Below, piece after piece: positions 4,891 to 42,181 of a stretch of DNA of 42,649 nt (position 1 is the stretch's first letter; every line of letters starts with the position of its first letter). The notes below the pieces were generated by a model, which saw only the letters and a list, made by a program, of their open reading frames with translations, made no database searches and had not been told where the DNA came from. The stretch lies in contig CAUJHL010000010.1 in the NCBI GenBank assembly GCA_963204705.1, positions 1 through 42,649 of the forward strand. The letters are read 5' to 3'. The position numbers and the translations under genes were made by a program. Source of the stretch: Pseudomonadota bacterium (GTDB taxonomy: Bacteria > Pseudomonadota > Gammaproteobacteria > Pseudomonadales > Moraxellaceae).

Positions 4891-6240
4891 GTGACTGCTT
4901 CTGCCCTCTGGTATCCCTGCACCCAGATGCACCATCTGGAGCAATTCCCGCCGTTGACCATCGCGCGGGCACAAGGCGCCTACCTCTACACGACTGAAGG
5001 TACGCCGATACTGGATGCCATCAGTTCCTGGTGGGTGAATCTGCACGGGCATTGCCATCCCTTTATCAATCAGGCTGTGATGGATCAGTTGGGACGCTGC
5101 GAGCAGGTGATGCTGGCAGGCCTTACTCATGAACCCATCGAACAACTGGCTGAGCGACTGGTGGCGCTGACGCCTGCTGCCCTGACCAAGGCCTTTTTTG
5201 CTGATAGTGGCTCTGCCGCCGTGGAAGTCGCGCTGAAAATGAGTCTTCAATATTGGCAACAATGCGGTGAAACCCAGCGCAAGACCTTTATTTCCCTGGA
5301 AAACGGCTATCACGGCGAAACACTGGGCAGCCTGTCAGTCACGGATATCCCGCTGTTCAGTGCCCAATACGCACCCTTGCTGATCCAGCATCTGCGCGCG
5401 CCCTCACCCGCACTGCAAACCAAACCCGAACTACTGTCAGAATCAGAGTTTATTCACCAGCAACTGAATGCGCTTGAACACTTAATGCAAACGCATGACG
5501 GCGAAATCTGTGCCCTGATCCTTGAGCCGCTGGTGCAGGGCGCTGCGGGAATGCACATGTACCCCGCCAGTTACCTCAAGGCCGCGCACGAACTGTGTGA
5601 TCGTTATCGTATCCATCTGATTCTGGATGAAATTGCCGTGGGTTTTGGCCGGACAGGCACGCTCTTTGCCCATGAGCAGGCCGGCATTTGTCCTGATTTT
5701 CTGTGTTTGTCAAAGGGATTGACGGCGGGCTATTTGCCGATGTCCTGCGTCCTGACCACCGACGATGTCTATGCCGCGTTTTACCATCCCTCCGTACAAC
5801 GGGGCTTTTTGCATTCCCACAGTTTTACTGGTAATCCGTTGGCCGCCCGTGCTGCACTGGCTTCGCTCGACTGGTTTGAACAACAGCAGGTGTTAACGAC
5901 CAATCAGCACTTGATTCACCACCTGTCACACGGTCTCGATGAACTTTGCCAGCATCCTCATATCCGGCAGGTGCGCCAGACGGGCATGATCGGTGCGTTT
6001 ACTCTGGTAAACGAGCACGGCATCGCCTATCCCGCTGAAGAAGGCCGTGGTCGTTTGCTGGCCCGCAAAGCCACAGAGCTGGGTGTATTGCTGCGGCCGA
6101 TTGGCAATCAGGTTTATCTGATGCCGCCGTATTGTGTCACGCCCGAGGAAATCCAGCGCATTTTACAAATAGCCGTCACCGCGCTGGAGTGGGCGATCTC
6201 GGAGCCGCCGCTCAATCAGTCGGCTGGAGCCTTAGCATGA
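4891..6240 (+). CDS. bioA: Adenosylmethionine-8-amino-7-oxononanoate aminotransferase
   Basis: BioA, a class III PLP aminotransferase that converts 7-keto-8-aminopelargonate to 7,8-diaminopelargonate using S-adenosylmethionine as amino donor, in biotin synthesis. The 449 residues show LWYPCTQM near the start, the substrate loop SSWWVNLHGHCHP (45-57), the PLP phosphate-binding GSAAVEVA (107-114), NGYHGET (138-144), the DEIAVGFGRTG stretch (246-256) with the Asp that pairs with the PLP ring, LSKGLTAGYLPMS with the Schiff-base Lys275, and HSFTGNPL. The start is GTG at 4891 with a poor ribosome binding site; the next in-frame ATG would cut off conserved sequence. No bioF, bioC, bioD or bioB is in the window, so the biotin genes are split, and I see no convincing BirA operator upstream. 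Its stop codon lies inside a degenerate hexanucleotide array. Confidence 0.93.
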   Translation: MTASALWYPCTQMHHLEQFPPLTIARAQGAYLYTTEGTPILDAISSWWVNLHGHCHPFINQAVMDQLGRCEQVMLAGLTHEPIEQLAERLVALTPAALTKAFFADSGSAAVEVALKMSLQYWQQCGETQRKTFISLENGYHGETLGSLSVTDIPLFSAQYAPLLIQHLRAPSPALQTKPELLSESEFIHQQLNALEHLMQTHDGEICALILEPLVQGAAGMHMYPASYLKAAHELCDRYRIHLILDEIAVGFGRTGTLFAHEQAGICPDFLCLSKGLTAGYLPMSCVLTTDDVYAAFYHPSVQRGFLHSHSFTGNPLAARAALASLDWFEQQQVLTTNQHLIHHLSHGLDELCQHPHIRQVRQTGMIGAFTLVNEHGIAYPAEEGRGRLLARKATELGVLLRPIGNQVYLMPPYCVTPEEIQRILQIAVTALEWAISEPPLNQSAGALA

Positions 6241-6332
6241 GCCTAAGCTGGAGTATGGGCAAGAGCATGCGCGTGAGTATGTTCCTGAGTAGAATGCTGA
6301 GAATAGTCATGAAAACCGTCATGAGCTTGAGT
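6237..6332. repeat. Degenerate hexanucleotide array (ATGAGC-like, ~16 units)
   Basis: Read in six-base steps from 6237 the sequence gives ATGAGC, CTAAGC, TGGAGT, ATGGGC, AAGAGC, ATGCGC, GTGAGT, ATGTTC, CTGAGT, then less regular units, ending with ATGAGC and TTGAGT. Five units fit NTGAGY exactly and most others differ at one or two positions. The bioA stop codon TGA (6238-6240) is part of the first unit, and the array fills nearly the whole bioA-rsmE gap. In one frame it would read as alternating Met/Leu-Ser dipeptides. It looks like an old tandem array that has decayed. Confidence 0.6.
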
Positions 6333-6343
6333 TAGGAATGGTC

Positions 6344-7066
6344 ATGAGTCGATTTTATACAGACCTTCCACTGAGCATGGGGCGGACGATTGCTTTACCT
6401 GAGCCAGTGTTTCATCACTGGGTTCGGGTACTGCGCGCCACGATTGGCGACACCGCGATTGTGTTTAATGGTCAGGGCGGCGAATACACCGCGACACTGG
6501 TGGACATTGGCAAACATCAGGCAAGTGTCCTGCTGTCCGATTTCAACGCGAAGGACCGGACACCCGCCAGTCAGGTCACGCTCGGGCTGGTCATGAGCAA
6601 AGGCGATCGCATGGATTATGCGATCCAGAAGGCCACCGAACTGGGCGTGCATGCCATTCAGCTGCTGACCAGTGAACGGTGTGAATTACGGCTGAAGTAC
6701 GAACGTGACCAAAAAAAGTTGCAGCACTGGCAACAAGTTGCGATTGCCGCCTGTGAGCAATGTGGCATGAACCGTATTCCGCAGGTTCTGCCACCGGTTA
6801 CGCTGCGGGAATGGGTCGATCAACCTGCTGCAGACAGCCTGAGACTGGTATTGGCGCCCACCTTGAGCACCCGAATACTCCCGACCCCACTTCCCGGCAC
6901 GATTCAGCTGCTCATTGGTCCCGAAGGCGGATTGAGCGAGGCCGAAATTGTTACCGCACAGCAGGCAGGTTTTTTAGGCTGGCAACTGGGCGAACGGATT
7001 CTAAGAACCGAGACAGCCCCTGTCGTTGCGCTCTCTCTACTGTGGTATCACCAGCAAACTGGCTAG
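6344..7066 (+). CDS. rsmE: 16S rRNA (uracil1498-N3)-methyltransferase
   Basis: RsmE methylates N3 of U1498 in 16S rRNA of the 30S subunit, using S-adenosylmethionine. With the start at 6344 it has 240 residues, the family's usual length. The N-terminal PUA-like domain begins MSRFYTDLPL and contains HWVRVLRA; the C-terminal SPOUT knot holds LVMSKGDRMDYAIQKATELG, LLIGPEGGLS (near 189-198) and LGERILRTETAPVVAL, the cofactor-binding signature. An in-frame ATG at 6338 directly abuts TAGGA (6333-6337), whereas the ATG at 6344 lies 6 nt after it, which decides the start. It follows bioA across a degenerate repeat, and its TAG stop merges into a perfect hexanucleotide array. Confidence 0.94.
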   Translation: MSRFYTDLPLSMGRTIALPEPVFHHWVRVLRATIGDTAIVFNGQGGEYTATLVDIGKHQASVLLSDFNAKDRTPASQVTLGLVMSKGDRMDYAIQKATELGVHAIQLLTSERCELRLKYERDQKKLQHWQQVAIAACEQCGMNRIPQVLPPVTLREWVDQPAADSLRLVLAPTLSTRILPTPLPGTIQLLIGPEGGLSEAEIVTAQQAGFLGWQLGERILRTETAPVVALSLLWYHQQTG

Positions 7067-7106
7067 GACAAGGACAAGGACAAGGACAAGGACAAGGACA
7101 AGGACA
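7065..7106. repeat. Perfect hexanucleotide array (AGGACA)x7
   Basis: Seven exact copies of AGGACA run from 7065 to 7106. The last two bases of the rsmE stop codon (TAG, 7064-7066) are the first two bases of the array. Loss or gain of whole units cannot change the rsmE frame or product. Read in one frame the array would encode alternating Gly-Gln, but there is no sign it is translated. Confidence 0.95.
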
Positions 7107-7248
7107 AGCATTGGCTGCAAGCCAGTGTTCACCCCCTGTCTTCGCGATAAACGGTAGCAAACTTAGCCTGAGTGATCGTAAATGCTGCAAATACACTGGC
7201 GTTGTGCATTTTTTGGACTGATTTTTGCCCGCTTTGCACTGGCGTCAC

Positions 7249-7277
7249 TTGCAGTTGAAGTGTGTACAGGCTATGTT
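7249..7277 (+). promoter_or_regulatory. Candidate sigma-70 promoter for the GGDEF-EAL gene
   Basis: TTGCAG at 7249-7254, a 17-bp spacer and TATGTT at 7272-7277. The next genes in this direction are the possible leader ORF at 7475 and the cyclic-di-GMP gene at 7663. A transcript would have a ~200-nt leader before the small ORF and would include the 12-bp repeats. Confidence 0.35.
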
Positions 7278-7288
7278 AAAGGAAAGGT

Positions 7289-7324
7289 ATTTTGATAGCG
7301 ATTTTGATACCGGTTTTGATACGG
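7289..7324. repeat. 12-bp tandem repeat, three copies
   Basis: ATTTTGATAGCG, ATTTTGATACCG and GTTTTGATACGG follow one another without gaps. The TTTTGATA core is identical in all three. The unit is unrelated to the AGGACA array 180 bp upstream. Confidence 0.8.
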
Positions 7325-7474
7325 TGTTATGGATTTAAACGATCCAGTCACCCATGGCCCTCAATGCTCTGGCAGCGCTTACTGCCTAAGGCCAGGGTTC
7401 ATGCGGGTGGCAAAGGTCAATGAGGACAGTCGCTGGATTGCGATCAATAATGAGATGGATTAAAAGGATTTGAC

Positions 7475-7660
7475 ATGTGTTTAGCATCGCAACTTTGGGC
7501 CTGTTTCAATCAGTGCCCCGGTATTTCTGGCCTGAATCGCCATCCGTGTTATTGTGATGAAGCTCAGTATTCGGCTTACATTTATCGAAGCATTCAAAAA
7601 AGGATTCAACCAAGCATTCAACCAAGCGCTTCCACCCTCTTTGTTACTGTGGGGAACTGA
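7475..7660 (+). CDS. Possible Cys-containing leader ORF upstream of the GGDEF-EAL gene
   Basis: A 61-codon frame starts with ATG at 7475, has AAGGA 6 nt upstream, and ends with TGA at 7658-7660, two bases before the GTG start of the cyclic-di-GMP gene. The peptide has five Cys in its first 27 residues (positions 2, 10, 14, 25, 27) and a duplicated IQPS near its end, caused by an exact 12-bp duplication at 7604-7627. No signal peptide and no known family. The good ribosome binding site and tight junction with the next start favour a translated, coupled leader; the unremarkable sequence and embedded repeat argue for chance. Confidence 0.3.
   Translation: MCLASQLWACFNQCPGISGLNRHPCYCDEAQYSAYIYRSIQKRIQPSIQPSASTLFVTVGN
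7604..7627. repeat. 12-bp exact tandem duplication
   Basis: ATTCAACCAAGC occurs twice in direct succession, preceded by a partial copy (AAGCATTCAA near 7588-7597). It lies in the 3' part of the possible leader ORF, where each unit adds four codons (Ile-Gln-Pro-Ser). Confidence 0.9.
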
Positions 7661-7662
7661 TA

Positions 7663-10587
7663 GTGCTCGGCGAGCCAAACTGGGATTTACAGCGTAGAAT
7701 TCACCATACGCAAATCATGGAAACCCGTGAGCAGCAAACTTTATTACTGCTGGCTCTGGGTGGCCTGATTATTCTTGCCTACCTGATTTTGCGTCAATTC
7801 CCCAGCATTAGTGCAGTCGATCTCAATACCTGGGGTATTCTGTCCGTATCGGCGGTACTGATTTCAGCAGTGATTAATTCCCATCTGAGTCAGCGTAGCC
7901 GTCACGTATCCCTTGAAGTGACGGATACCTATCTGGCGATTAATGCCTTTATCATGGGTCTGATTCTCGCAACAGGTCAAATACCGTTTGGCCTCACTAT
8001 GGATCTGCATGAGCTGAACAAAAGCATTCCGATTGAGCCCTATATTTTTGGCACGGTTATCGTTTTCTCCCATATTCTCGCGCTGATTAGTCTGACTAAC
8101 CGTATCCGCTACTTTTTGATTTTTCTACTCACCAGCATGGCCCCTGCGCTGGTCATTCAGGTCATGCAGTGGAATGCCTTTTTTGCTGGCGGTATTAACT
8201 TCAGTTTGCTCACCGATATTTACCTTGGATTTATGTTATTTTGCGGGTTTCGGTTATACCGGATTCGGGATCGCGCTACGTTATTGATGATTCGAAACGA
8301 TAATCTGGTGACCCATGCCGAATCCCAGTTTACGATGGCCGAGCAAGTCAATAAACTGCTCGAGCAGGAAATCCGGGATCGTAAATCGGTAGAATTACAA
8401 CTACAGCAGTCCAATTTTAAACTCGAAGAAAAAGTCCGTGAGCGGACACAGGATATTCAGCAAATTAATGCCAGCCTTGAGCGTTCCAAGCACAGTCTGG
8501 AGCTGGCTCATAGCACTGCAGGAATTGGCAGCTGGGACTGGGATATTCAAAATCGCCAGATCAGCTCTACCAATTTTGATCAAATTCTGGGTTATAGCAA
8601 TGAAGAGGTGAATGAATTTATCGGCACGATGAGCCGTATCATTCACCCCGAAGATTTCCCTGCGGTACGCCGAGCCATTACCGATCACCTGATGGGTCGA
8701 ACCGAGCGCTACGAGGCGGAATATCGGGTTCGTCACAAATACGGTTTCTGGGTTTGGGTACAGGATCTGGGTAAAGTCATCGAACGCGACCCCAAAACCC
8801 GTCGGGCGCTCAGGATGGTTGGGACGCGTCGCAATATCAATGCGGAAAAGCTGGCCGCTGAAAAGCTCAAATTATCGGCTACCGTTTTTCAACAGGCCGC
8901 TGAAGGGATATTCATCCTCGATAATAAATTACATTACATGGATATGAACCCGCGTTTTGAGCAAATTACCGGCTACGAACGCAGTGATCTGATTGGTGCT
9001 CACGTCTTTAATCATCCGAATGTCCCACCAAGGGTAAAACAGCAATATTTAAAAATGTTGAAATCGCTGGTCACGCATGGTGAATATGAAGGTGAAATCA
9101 TTGATCAGCATAAAGATGGTGACGAACTCCCCATCTGGATACACGTGAATGGTATTTCTGACGACAAAAATCGAATCACCCATTATATCGGTATTATTTC
9201 GGATTTGACTCAGCGCAAGCGCGATGAGCAGCGTTTGTCGTATCTGGCGAATTATGATGCGCTCACCGATTTACCCAACCGGAACCTCTTTAAAAGCCGC
9301 CTGCATCAACTGATTCTGACGGTTTCTTCCTCTCTGGAAAGTTTTGCCTTATTACGGATTAATATTGACCGCTTCCGCTTTTTGAATGATTCACTGGGAG
9401 CGGATGGCGGCGATGCCCTGCTGCAAAAAGTCGCGCGCAGACTGACCTTGACCGATAATCAGTCCAGTCTGATTGCCCGACTCGGCGGTGATGATTTTGC
9501 CCTGATTATCGAAAATGTTAAAACGCTCAAAGAGCTGGATCATTATTGTGAACGCCTGATGCAGGCGTTTGCTGAACCGTTTGAAATCTCCGATCAGGAA
9601 ATTATTGCCACGCTGTCCATTGGTATCGCCATGTTCCCTGATCACGGCAGGCAGGTAGATACCCTGTCCAATCATGCCGAAAAAGCCCTGCAGGATGCCA
9701 AACGGGTGGGTGGCCATACCGTGCGGTATTTCAACAGCGATACCAGTATGCAGTCTGTTGAACGCATTAATCTGGAAAATGCCCTGCGCAAAGCCCTGTC
9801 CAATGATGAACTGACGGTGTATTACCAGCCCAAAATCAGCGTCAAAACCCAGCGAGTGGAAGGGTTTGAAGCACTGGTGCGCTGGATTCACCCCAAAAAT
9901 GGCCTGATTTCACCTGTCCAGTTTATTCCACTAGCAGAAGAAACCGGATTGATTTCGGTACTGGGTGAAATCGTGCTCGATAAATCCTGTGCCCAAATCA
10001 AAAAATGGCAGGAAGAAGGATTCCGTGACATCAGTGTTTCGGTTAATGTCGTGGCTCAACAATTGCAGCGCGGTAATTTTCTGAATACCGTGGATCGGAT
10101 TTTGGCCCAGCATCAGCTGGATCCCCAATGGCTGGAGCTGGAAATCACCGAATCGTCGCTTATGGACGATCCCGAAAAGATTAATGCCCTGCTGAGCGAA
10201 ATCAAAAGCCGCCACGTCACCATCGCACTGGATGACTTTGGGACGGGTTATTCATCACTCTCCTACCTCGGTCAATATCCCATTGATGTGCTGAAAGTGG
10301 ATCGTTCCTTTGTAATGGAAGTGGGCAATAACCCCAGCCACGAAGCCATTGTGCGGGCAATCCTCGCCATGGGTCATTCCCTGGGCATGAAGGTCGTGGC
10401 TGAGGGTGTTGAAACTCGCGAGCACGCCAAGTTCCTGCAGGATGAAGGCTGTGATTTGCTGCAGGGCTTCCTGATCAGTAAACCCTTACCAGCGGATCAG
10501 GCAACCGATTTTCTCAAGCGCATGCACACCAGTAGCCCAACGACACCCAACAACGCCCAACAACGCCGTGAAATTTTCCCATGGTGA
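7663..10587 (+). CDS. Membrane PAS-PAS-GGDEF-EAL cyclic-di-GMP enzyme
   Basis: A 974-residue inner-membrane sensor that makes or breaks cyclic-di-GMP. Residues ~24-200 hold about six or seven hydrophobic helices (a MASE-type input region). A coiled coil follows (~220-275), then two PAS domains (~285-395, with GIGSWDWD; ~405-515, with AAEGIFILD). The GGDEF domain (~525-690) has YDALTDLPNRNLF and the active-site loop RLGGDDF (606-612) in place of GGDEF; no RxxD inhibitory site is seen ahead of it. The EAL domain (~705-950) retains EAL at 736-738, Asn795, Glu827, the Asp857-Asp858 pair in DDFGTGYSS, Lys878 and Glu914 in AEGVET, so phosphodiesterase activity is likely. The start is GTG with GGGGA 8 nt upstream; an ATG at 7717, just before the first helix, is the alternative. 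A triple 10-bp repeat sits in the last codons. Confidence 0.9.
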   Translation: MLGEPNWDLQRRIHHTQIMETREQQTLLLLALGGLIILAYLILRQFPSISAVDLNTWGILSVSAVLISAVINSHLSQRSRHVSLEVTDTYLAINAFIMGLILATGQIPFGLTMDLHELNKSIPIEPYIFGTVIVFSHILALISLTNRIRYFLIFLLTSMAPALVIQVMQWNAFFAGGINFSLLTDIYLGFMLFCGFRLYRIRDRATLLMIRNDNLVTHAESQFTMAEQVNKLLEQEIRDRKSVELQLQQSNFKLEEKVRERTQDIQQINASLERSKHSLELAHSTAGIGSWDWDIQNRQISSTNFDQILGYSNEEVNEFIGTMSRIIHPEDFPAVRRAITDHLMGRTERYEAEYRVRHKYGFWVWVQDLGKVIERDPKTRRALRMVGTRRNINAEKLAAEKLKLSATVFQQAAEGIFILDNKLHYMDMNPRFEQITGYERSDLIGAHVFNHPNVPPRVKQQYLKMLKSLVTHGEYEGEIIDQHKDGDELPIWIHVNGISDDKNRITHYIGIISDLTQRKRDEQRLSYLANYDALTDLPNRNLFKSRLHQLILTVSSSLESFALLRINIDRFRFLNDSLGADGGDALLQKVARRLTLTDNQSSLIARLGGDDFALIIENVKTLKELDHYCERLMQAFAEPFEISDQEIIATLSIGIAMFPDHGRQVDTLSNHAEKALQDAKRVGGHTVRYFNSDTSMQSVERINLENALRKALSNDELTVYYQPKISVKTQRVEGFEALVRWIHPKNGLISPVQFIPLAEETGLISVLGEIVLDKSCAQIKKWQEEGFRDISVSVNVVAQQLQRGNFLNTVDRILAQHQLDPQWLELEITESSLMDDPEKINALLSEIKSRHVTIALDDFGTGYSSLSYLGQYPIDVLKVDRSFVMEVGNNPSHEAIVRAILAMGHSLGMKVVAEGVETREHAKFLQDEGCDLLQGFLISKPLPADQATDFLKRMHTSSPTTPNNAQQRREIFPW
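10536..10565. repeat. 10-bp tandem repeat at the 3' end of the GGDEF-EAL gene
   Basis: CCCAACGACA followed by two exact copies of CCCAACAACG, ending 20 bp before the stop codon. Because 10 is not a multiple of three, copy changes would alter the last residues and the stop position, though these lie beyond the EAL fold. Confidence 0.85.
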
Positions 10588-41900: not shown

Positions 41901-42053
41901 GAACAGCGTGCGCCCATGGCGCATGCCATCATTGGCGGTGTCGCAACTTCTACCCTGCTGACACTGGTAGTGGTTCCGGTGATTTATACTTATCTGGATG
42001 ATTTCAAGAATTTTATGGCAACGTTGCTAAAGCGGGCAAGAACCTCACGCTAG
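38943..42053 (+). CDS. RND-family efflux pump, HAE1 type
   Basis: A 1,036-residue proton-driven inner-membrane exporter. The usual plan is visible: a first helix near residues 12-30 ([17 protein letters not shown]), a large periplasmic loop, helices 2-6 (~330-480), a helix near 525-545, the second periplasmic loop, and helices 8-12 (~860-1020). The proton-relay pair Asp400-Asp401 in [16 protein letters not shown] (helix 4) matches AcrB Asp407-Asp408. [17 protein letters not shown] (helix 10) carries the Lys that completes the relay. AGGA lies 10 nt before the ATG. It pairs with the adaptor lipoprotein just upstream. HAE1 pumps export hydrophobic or amphiphilic compounds; the specific substrate cannot be read from the sequence. 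Confidence 0.93.
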
Positions 42054-42062
42054 CCAATTGCG

Positions 42063-42090
42063 AGCTACTGGATAGCTACTGGATAGCTAC
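42063..42090. repeat. 11-bp tandem repeat, 2.5 copies
   Basis: AGCTACTGGAT occurs at 42063-42073 and 42074-42084, followed by a partial copy AGCTAC. It begins 10 bp after the RND pump stop codon. A hairpin (TGGGCAG/CTGCCCA, 42128-42148) without a T-run lies further on. Confidence 0.9.
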
Positions 42091-42181
42091 TTGAGGGCCA
42101 CTAGCAAGCCGATTATCCGGCTGGGGCTGGGCAGACATCCGCTGCCCACAACTGTGACAAGGCCTAAGCAGTCTGTCTCCT

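What the first reader, a model, noticed from the sequence alone, without database searches (positions are those of the whole stretch)
6237..7108. Hexanucleotide arrays anchored in the stop codons of two consecutive genes
The bioA stop lies inside the first unit of a decayed ATGAGC-type array (~16 units), and the rsmE stop overlaps the first unit of a perfect (AGGACA)7 array. The units are unrelated in sequence, yet both are hexamers starting at the stop codon and running downstream. Two such coincidences in a row suggest a process that generates or tolerates expansions at stop codons, such as slippage seeded at the 3' end or a role in termination or mRNA 3' ends.
Basis: seen in the sequence. 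Interest (0 to 1): 0.6.

Follow-up and report, generated by a model that had tools for sequence, protein, structure and literature searches.

The report
Tandem repeats grown across stop codons
Both repeat arrays are real, but they are two of about 170 short, mostly decayed tandem arrays between the genes of this Moraxellaceae genome; they most likely arose by neutral slippage-type duplication that is tolerated at stop codons because the first copy still ends the protein, and not as termination signals.

Summary
A decayed ATGAGC array (6223-6349) and a perfect (AGGACA)7.3 array (7065-7108) each contain a stop codon, and neither is chance. The host is a 2.4 Mb Moraxellaceae genome near Alkanindiges. 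In 1.6 Mb of it I found 171 short tandem arrays in intergenic gaps (mode 13-15 bp; about 1 expected in shuffles), about 25 times the E. coli density. Hexamers are rare among them. In four relatives bioA and rsmE overlap by ATGA (ATGAGT in three); here that hexamer was expanded, so bioA stops in the first copy and rsmE starts in the last. Proteins ending in arrays have normal C-termini (EF-Tu, HemB, GlyS, RsmE), so most arrays grew out from existing stops. Stop triplets, frame, strand composition and unit sequence show no selection. Best reading: recurrent short tandem duplication, tolerated across stops because the first copy still ends the protein. A termination role is not supported. The genome-wide abundance and the split gene junction are the interesting parts.

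The parts
4891..6240 (+). bioA (adenosylmethionine--8-amino-7-oxononanoate transaminase); stop TGA 6238-6240 lies in the first ATGAGC unit
   Evidence: ORF; NCBIfam bioA TIGR00508, 4e-163; the C-terminus LA* matches the L[P/A]* end of BioA in many relatives
6223..6349 (+). Decayed ATGAGY array (period 6/12, about 18 units), from the last codons of bioA to the rsmE start codon
   Evidence: fold z = 10.5; interior consensus ATGAGC; four relatives have an ATGA bioA/rsmE overlap here, ATGAGT in three
6237..6335 (+). 32-codon frame left open by the array (ATGA overlap with the bioA stop); probably a by-product
   Evidence: read directly from the sequence
6344..7066 (+). rsmE (16S rRNA m3U1498 methyltransferase), stop TAG 7064-7066; an alternative start is 6338
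   Evidence: ORF; NCBIfam NF008692, 3e-92; start ATG-AGT-CG as in relatives
7065..7108 (+). Perfect (AGGACA)7.3 array starting inside the rsmE stop codon
   Evidence: TRF 100% matches; unique in the genome
7107..7128 (+). Hairpin directly after the array (GCATTGGCT-GCA-AGCCAGTGT), terminator-like stem without a T tract
   Evidence: centroid structure; hairpin scan
7282..7334 (+). Decayed 12-bp array (ATTTTGATACCG) further downstream in the same gap
7579..7642 (+). Decayed 12-bp array (AAGCATTCAACC) in the same gap
42049..42115 (+). Third stop-anchored array in the window: AGCTACTGGAT (11 bp) at the stop (42051-42053) of the 1036-aa ORF, with a hairpin after it

Best explanation
The two arrays are products of a genome-wide mutational habit: repeated tandem duplication of short segments (about 6-17 bp, mode 13-15), most simply by slipped-strand mispairing, followed by base substitution. 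Duplications inside genes are removed because they shift the frame or insert residues. A duplication whose segment includes the stop codon is invisible to the protein, because the first copy still carries the stop; in the same way a duplication that includes the next gene's start leaves the last copy intact. Arrays therefore survive in intergenic DNA, may overlap the last few codons, and often begin at the stop. At bioA/rsmE the ancestral ATGA overlap (...C-ATGAGT-CG...) was expanded: bioA ends in the first ATGAGC, rsmE starts at the last ATGAGT, and 103 nt of decaying copies lie between. At rsmE a separate, recent (still perfect) expansion of AGGACA begins in the stop codon and lies between it and a hairpin. 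Shown: the arrays, their genome-wide abundance, modest stop enrichment, normal C-termini, and the overlap in relatives. Inferred: the direction of change (overlap ancestral), slippage as the mechanism, and neutrality.
For: 171 intergenic arrays in 1.59 Mb against about 1 in dinucleotide shuffles. 8.1 arrays with period not a multiple of 3 per 100 kb, against 0.33 in 300 kb of E. coli K-12. Arrays in coding DNA have almost only periods 6, 9, 12, 15 and 18, noncoding ones all periods. Stop-flank edge rate 2.4 per 1000 sites against about 1.2 at 13-140 nt; starts flat at about 1 or lower. C-terminal excess over NCBIfam models: median 2.0 for 22 array-anchored proteins, 2.5 for 24 controls, P = 0.96. 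The ATGA overlap in L009, L014, L053 and L057, with hexamer ATGAGT in three, against interior array consensus ATGAGC. ahcY in three Alkanindiges-clade genomes: in L049 the stop-to-terminator spacer is a single 17-nt TTTTTAAAGATAGCATG; in L048 and L050 it is a 16/17-bp array whose last unit resembles that spacer. Hairpins lie further from the stop where an array is present (median 72 against 45.5 nt, P = 0.004). Identity to the first unit falls with distance, while neighbouring units stay about 0.63 alike.
Against: A 1.4-1.6-fold excess at stops remains after allowing for straddling, so tolerance alone may not be the whole story; in gaps of 200 nt or more the rate falls steadily away from the stop. 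The period mode of 13-15 bp is the same in all intergenic classes and nothing here explains it. No strain-level copy-number data exist here, so slippage is not shown. The genome is a draft (169 contigs) and two thirds of it was examined, with my own simple gene caller.
Confidence: 0.75

Rival explanations
1. Stop codons or gene 3' ends actively seed duplications (for example replication-transcription conflict or pausing at the 3' end), so arrays form there more often than elsewhere between genes.
For: Residual 1.4-1.6-fold excess at stops, present in the most alike (youngest) third (20 against 10.5 expected at edge <= 0) and in convergent gaps (20 against 13.2); no excess at starts.
Against: The excess shrinks to about 1.3-fold and often loses significance with TRF-called, higher-identity arrays; promoters and ribosome-binding sites bar arrays from other parts of the gaps and give an excess at stops without seeding; 74 arrays lie elsewhere in stop-flanked gaps and 32 in divergent gaps, with the same period.
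Confidence: 0.15
2. The arrays are functional 3' elements: back-up stops in all frames, Rho-utilisation sites with a 11-14 nt pitch, or part of terminators.
For: Location after stops; array coverage peaks 40-60 nt downstream of stops; sense stop triplets are enriched in arrays of co-directional gaps (z 7.3).
Against: Stop triplets at the stop phase are no better kept than other triplets (0.253 against 0.227), and changes to another stop are as frequent as for antisense controls; for periods not divisible by 3 stops are not commoner in frame 0 (0.054 against 0.068 and 0.063); sense-strand C (0.198) does not exceed G (0.211); hairpins are not commoner at arrays; no array at the bioA or rsmE stops in the relatives inspected; nothing in Rfam.
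Confidence: 0.04
3. Pre-existing arrays captured the ends of genes: ORFs that lost their stop ran into an array and ended at its first in-frame stop.
For: Many arrays overlap the last few codons; a few array-anchored proteins have long tails (GlpD-like, AmpG-like, FFLEELY protein).
Against: C-terminal tails of array-anchored proteins do not differ from controls (P = 0.96), and EF-Tu, HemB, GlyS, FbaA, YqgE and RsmE end within a few residues of their models; BioA keeps the L[P/A]* end.
Confidence: 0.05

Closest known systems
Tandem repeats of Borg elements of Methanoperedens (PMC9879509)
   Same: Many unrelated short tandem arrays that are lineage-specific and arise independently; in ORFs the unit length is divisible by three, mostly not between genes; [quoted passage not shown]
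   Different: Borg arrays are perfect and lie on extrachromosomal archaeal elements; here most are decayed, on a bacterial chromosome, with a 13-15 bp mode
TAACTGA heptamer direct repeats of marine Beggiatoaceae (PMC4679880)
   Same: Abundant short tandem arrays between genes of a gammaproteobacterium; some overlap stop codons
   Different: There one conserved heptamer, mostly facing a start codon; here a different unit at each site, and no preference for starts
Long simple sequence repeats of prokaryotes (Mrazek et al. 2007, as summarised in PMC4679880)
   Same: Genomes rich in 5-11 nt repeats attributed to slippage; multiples of three favoured in coding DNA
   Different: Heptamers were commonest there; here units of 12-16 bp dominate and copies are degenerate

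Membership tests
Slippage-type short tandem repeats (bacterial minisatellites / LSSR) | Head-to-tail copies well beyond chance | tested here: met
Slippage-type short tandem repeats (bacterial minisatellites / LSSR) | Unit length divisible by three in coding DNA and free between genes | tested here: met
   160 of 167 coding arrays have a period divisible by 3; noncoding ones peak at 13-14
Slippage-type short tandem repeats (bacterial minisatellites / LSSR) | Copy number varies between strains | not testable with these tools
   no second genome of the genus was returned among the relatives
TAACTGA-type repeat family | One conserved unit sequence across loci | tested here: not met
   units differ from locus to locus; AGGACA array unique
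Borg-type tandem repeats | Perfect units in extrachromosomal elements | tested here: not met
   median neighbour identity 0.63; arrays sit beside core chromosomal genes such as EF-Tu, glyS and hemB
Rho-utilisation sites | C-rich, G-poor sense strand | tested here: not met
   C 0.198, G 0.211 in co-directional arrays
Intrinsic terminators | GC-rich hairpin followed by a T tract within the array | tested here: not met
   a stem follows the AGGACA array but has no T tract; T-tailed hairpins are equally frequent (0.20) at stops with and without arrays

The most novel reading that the evidence does not exclude
Gene 3' ends are true hot spots for a lineage-specific process that makes tandem duplications of about 14 bp, so that stop codons seed arrays rather than merely tolerate them, and the process can pull apart overlapping genes (bioA/rsmE) without harming either.
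Probability: 0.15. Interest if true: 0.65.

Novelty: new variant of a known kind. Interest (0 to 1): 0.42.

Why it matters
It gives a concrete route by which tightly packed bacterial genes gain intergenic DNA: duplications spanning a stop (or a stop/start overlap) leave both proteins intact, so they escape selection and can accumulate. The bioA/rsmE junction, with relatives that keep the ATGA overlap, and the ahcY spacer in Alkanindiges, are small natural experiments. The unusual density of 13-15 bp arrays in this lineage also makes the source of short tandem duplications testable.

Tried and rejected
Termination or 3'-end function was tested by stop-triplet retention, frame, strand composition, hairpins and Rfam, and rejected. 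Capture of genes by arrays was tested with NCBIfam C-terminal tails and rejected as the general cause. Setting of the period by the stop-to-terminator spacer was suggested by ahcY but rejected, because divergent gaps have the same period. Tight coupling of array ends to hairpins was not significant. Young-versus-old arrays did not separate seeding from tolerance. The AGGACA array contains six ACAAGGA motifs, which resemble the CsrA-binding consensus (own knowledge), and the genome has a csrA gene; one array out of about 170 is weak evidence, so this is only noted. Denser sampling of Alkanindiges and Acinetobacter chromosomes was therefore not done, and the relative-genome density (about 1.7 per 100 kb near rsmE, one of the nine hits a masked run of N) is only indicative.

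Full report
WHAT IS THERE. The window is contig C10 of a 2.4 Mb, 169-contig Moraxellaceae genome with no other genome of its genus among the relatives searched; its nearest named RsmE is from Alkanindiges illinoisensis at 68%. bioA ends with TGA at 6238-6240, rsmE with TAG at 7064-7066. The (AGGACA)7.3 array at 7065-7108 is perfect and found nowhere else in the genome. The ATGAGC array is decayed but beyond doubt: over 6220-6358 the six-column fold scores z = 10.5 and lag 12 z = 9.0 against 1000 dinucleotide shuffles. It starts inside bioA (about 6223) and reaches the rsmE start codon.

GENOME-WIDE SCAN. I took 1.6 Mb of the genome as contig stretches, called 1404 genes with a hexamer model and searched for arrays of period 5-19 with a two-lag self-match score. 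Within intergenic gaps 156 arrays reached score 10 against 1 in dinucleotide shuffles; scanning whole contigs gave 189 noncoding-majority and 167 coding-majority arrays, and 171 arrays could be assigned to a gap. Coding arrays have periods 6, 9, 12, 15 and 18 almost only; noncoding ones peak at 13-14. Arrays with periods not divisible by three occur at 8.1 per 100 kb, against 0.33 in 300 kb of E. coli K-12; around rsmE in about 80 named relatives the figure is near 1.7, a small and uneven sample in which one of nine hits is a masked run.

ARE STOPS SPECIAL? With a null that places each array uniformly in its own gap and lets it straddle a stop by one unit, 49 array edges lie at or before a stop against 30.3 expected, and 65 within 12 nt against 45.8. 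Co-directional gaps give 28 against 15.8 and convergent gaps 20 against 13.2 for edge <= 0. Per available site the rate is 2.4 per 1000 at -17 to +12 and about 1.2 at 13-140 nt; at starts it is flat or depleted. The result depends on the detector: TRF arrays give a 1.3-fold excess with P from 0.01 to 0.3. The excess is therefore modest. About 65 of 171 intergenic arrays are stop-proximal, but only two of these were scored with period 6, so two hexamers in a row is a local coincidence within a general pattern.

HOW THE ARRAYS AROSE. Two natural experiments are informative. First, in relatives L009, L014, L053 and L057 bioA and rsmE overlap by four bases, ATGA, within ATGAGT in three of them; in L016, L020, L027, L028 and L032 the genes lie -1 to +8 nt apart. 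In the window's genome the start is 103 nt after the stop, and the consensus of the 15 interior units, computed without the two junction copies, is ATGAGC. The simplest history is tandem expansion of the overlapping stop/start hexamer: bioA keeps the stop of the first copy and rsmE the start of the last. BioA keeps the L[P/A]* end seen in relatives. Second, at ahcY (identified from its C-terminus, with a metF-like gene following; my reading of the translation) A. hydrocarboniclasticus (L049) has a 17-nt spacer, TTTTTAAAGATAGCATG, between stop and terminator; A. illinoisensis (L048) and a related MAG (L050) have there a 16- or 17-bp array whose last unit resembles that spacer and which ends at the same terminator.

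GROWTH FROM NATIVE STOPS. Of 30 proteins tested whose genes overlap or touch an array at their stop, 22 could be placed on NCBIfam models; their C-terminal excess has median 2.0 residues against 2.5 in 24 controls (Mann-Whitney P = 0.96; the excess values were read by eye from the tables). EF-Tu, HemB, GlyS, FbaA, YqgE and RsmE end within a few residues of their models. So the stop generally came first and the array grew from it. Identity to the first unit declines along the array while neighbouring units stay near 0.63 alike, as expected for stepwise duplication and decay.

NO SIGN OF A TERMINATION FUNCTION. Stop triplets are not better conserved than other triplets in the units (0.253 against 0.227), conversions to other stops match the antisense control, frames are even when the period is not divisible by three, and C does not exceed G. 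T-tailed hairpins are equally frequent at stops with and without arrays (0.20 each) but lie further downstream where an array is present (median 98 against 52 nt, P = 0.03; for stronger stems without a T-tract requirement 72 against 45.5 nt, P = 0.004). Rfam finds nothing at 6100-7800. The rsmE array is followed by a stem (7107-7128) without a T tract.

COMPARISON. [quoted passage not shown] What differs here is the chromosomal setting, the degenerate 13-15 bp mode, the modest preference for stops, and a case in which an overlapping stop/start junction was itself the repeated unit. I found no paper describing that in the library, which is not proof of absence.

LIMITS. One draft genome, a home-made gene caller, imprecise start codons, no strain comparison, and a null that cannot mask unknown promoters. 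Slippage and neutrality are inferred, not shown.

Noticed in passing
6237-6335: The ATGAGC array leaves a 32-codon frame (MSLSWSMGKSMRVSMFLSRMLRIVMKTVMSLS*) open from the bioA TGA overlap to just before the rsmE ribosome-binding site; probably a by-product of the hexamer.
   Followed up: partly
7061-7115: The AGGACA array contains six ACAAGGA motifs, resembling the CsrA-binding consensus; the genome has one csrA gene (C110:20911-21066).
   Followed up: partly
6223-7642: Four arrays in 1.4 kb all have period 6 or 12, although the genome mode is 13-15.
   Followed up: no
L191:551-766, L238:7515-7712, L195:3384-3591, L233:3866-4115, L241:7773-7995: Dispersed palindromic-looking intergenic repeats with the core TTCGACAAGCTCAGGGAGC / GAGCCTGTCGAAATG (REP-like), many copies in the genome, none in the window.
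   Followed up: partly
L200:14518-15001: CRISPR-like array (repeat GTTTCAATTCACGCGCCCGTGAGGGCACGAAC, 64-bp period); a type I-E Cse2 gene is on another contig (L046:3711-4289).
   Followed up: no
L163:10702-10787 and L144:14270-14309: Long hexamer arrays inside coding sequence near gene 3' ends: (AGCCAA)13.5 and (AACAGC)6.7, the second 4 bp before a stop.
   Followed up: no
L215:2022-2106 and L224:15147-15234: Arrays of 15 and 17 bp fill the whole gap from the hemB and glyS stops to the next start, like the bioA/rsmE case.
   Followed up: partly
L128:7939-9074: 318-bp repeat, 3.6 copies, inside a coding sequence (probably a large surface protein).
   Followed up: no
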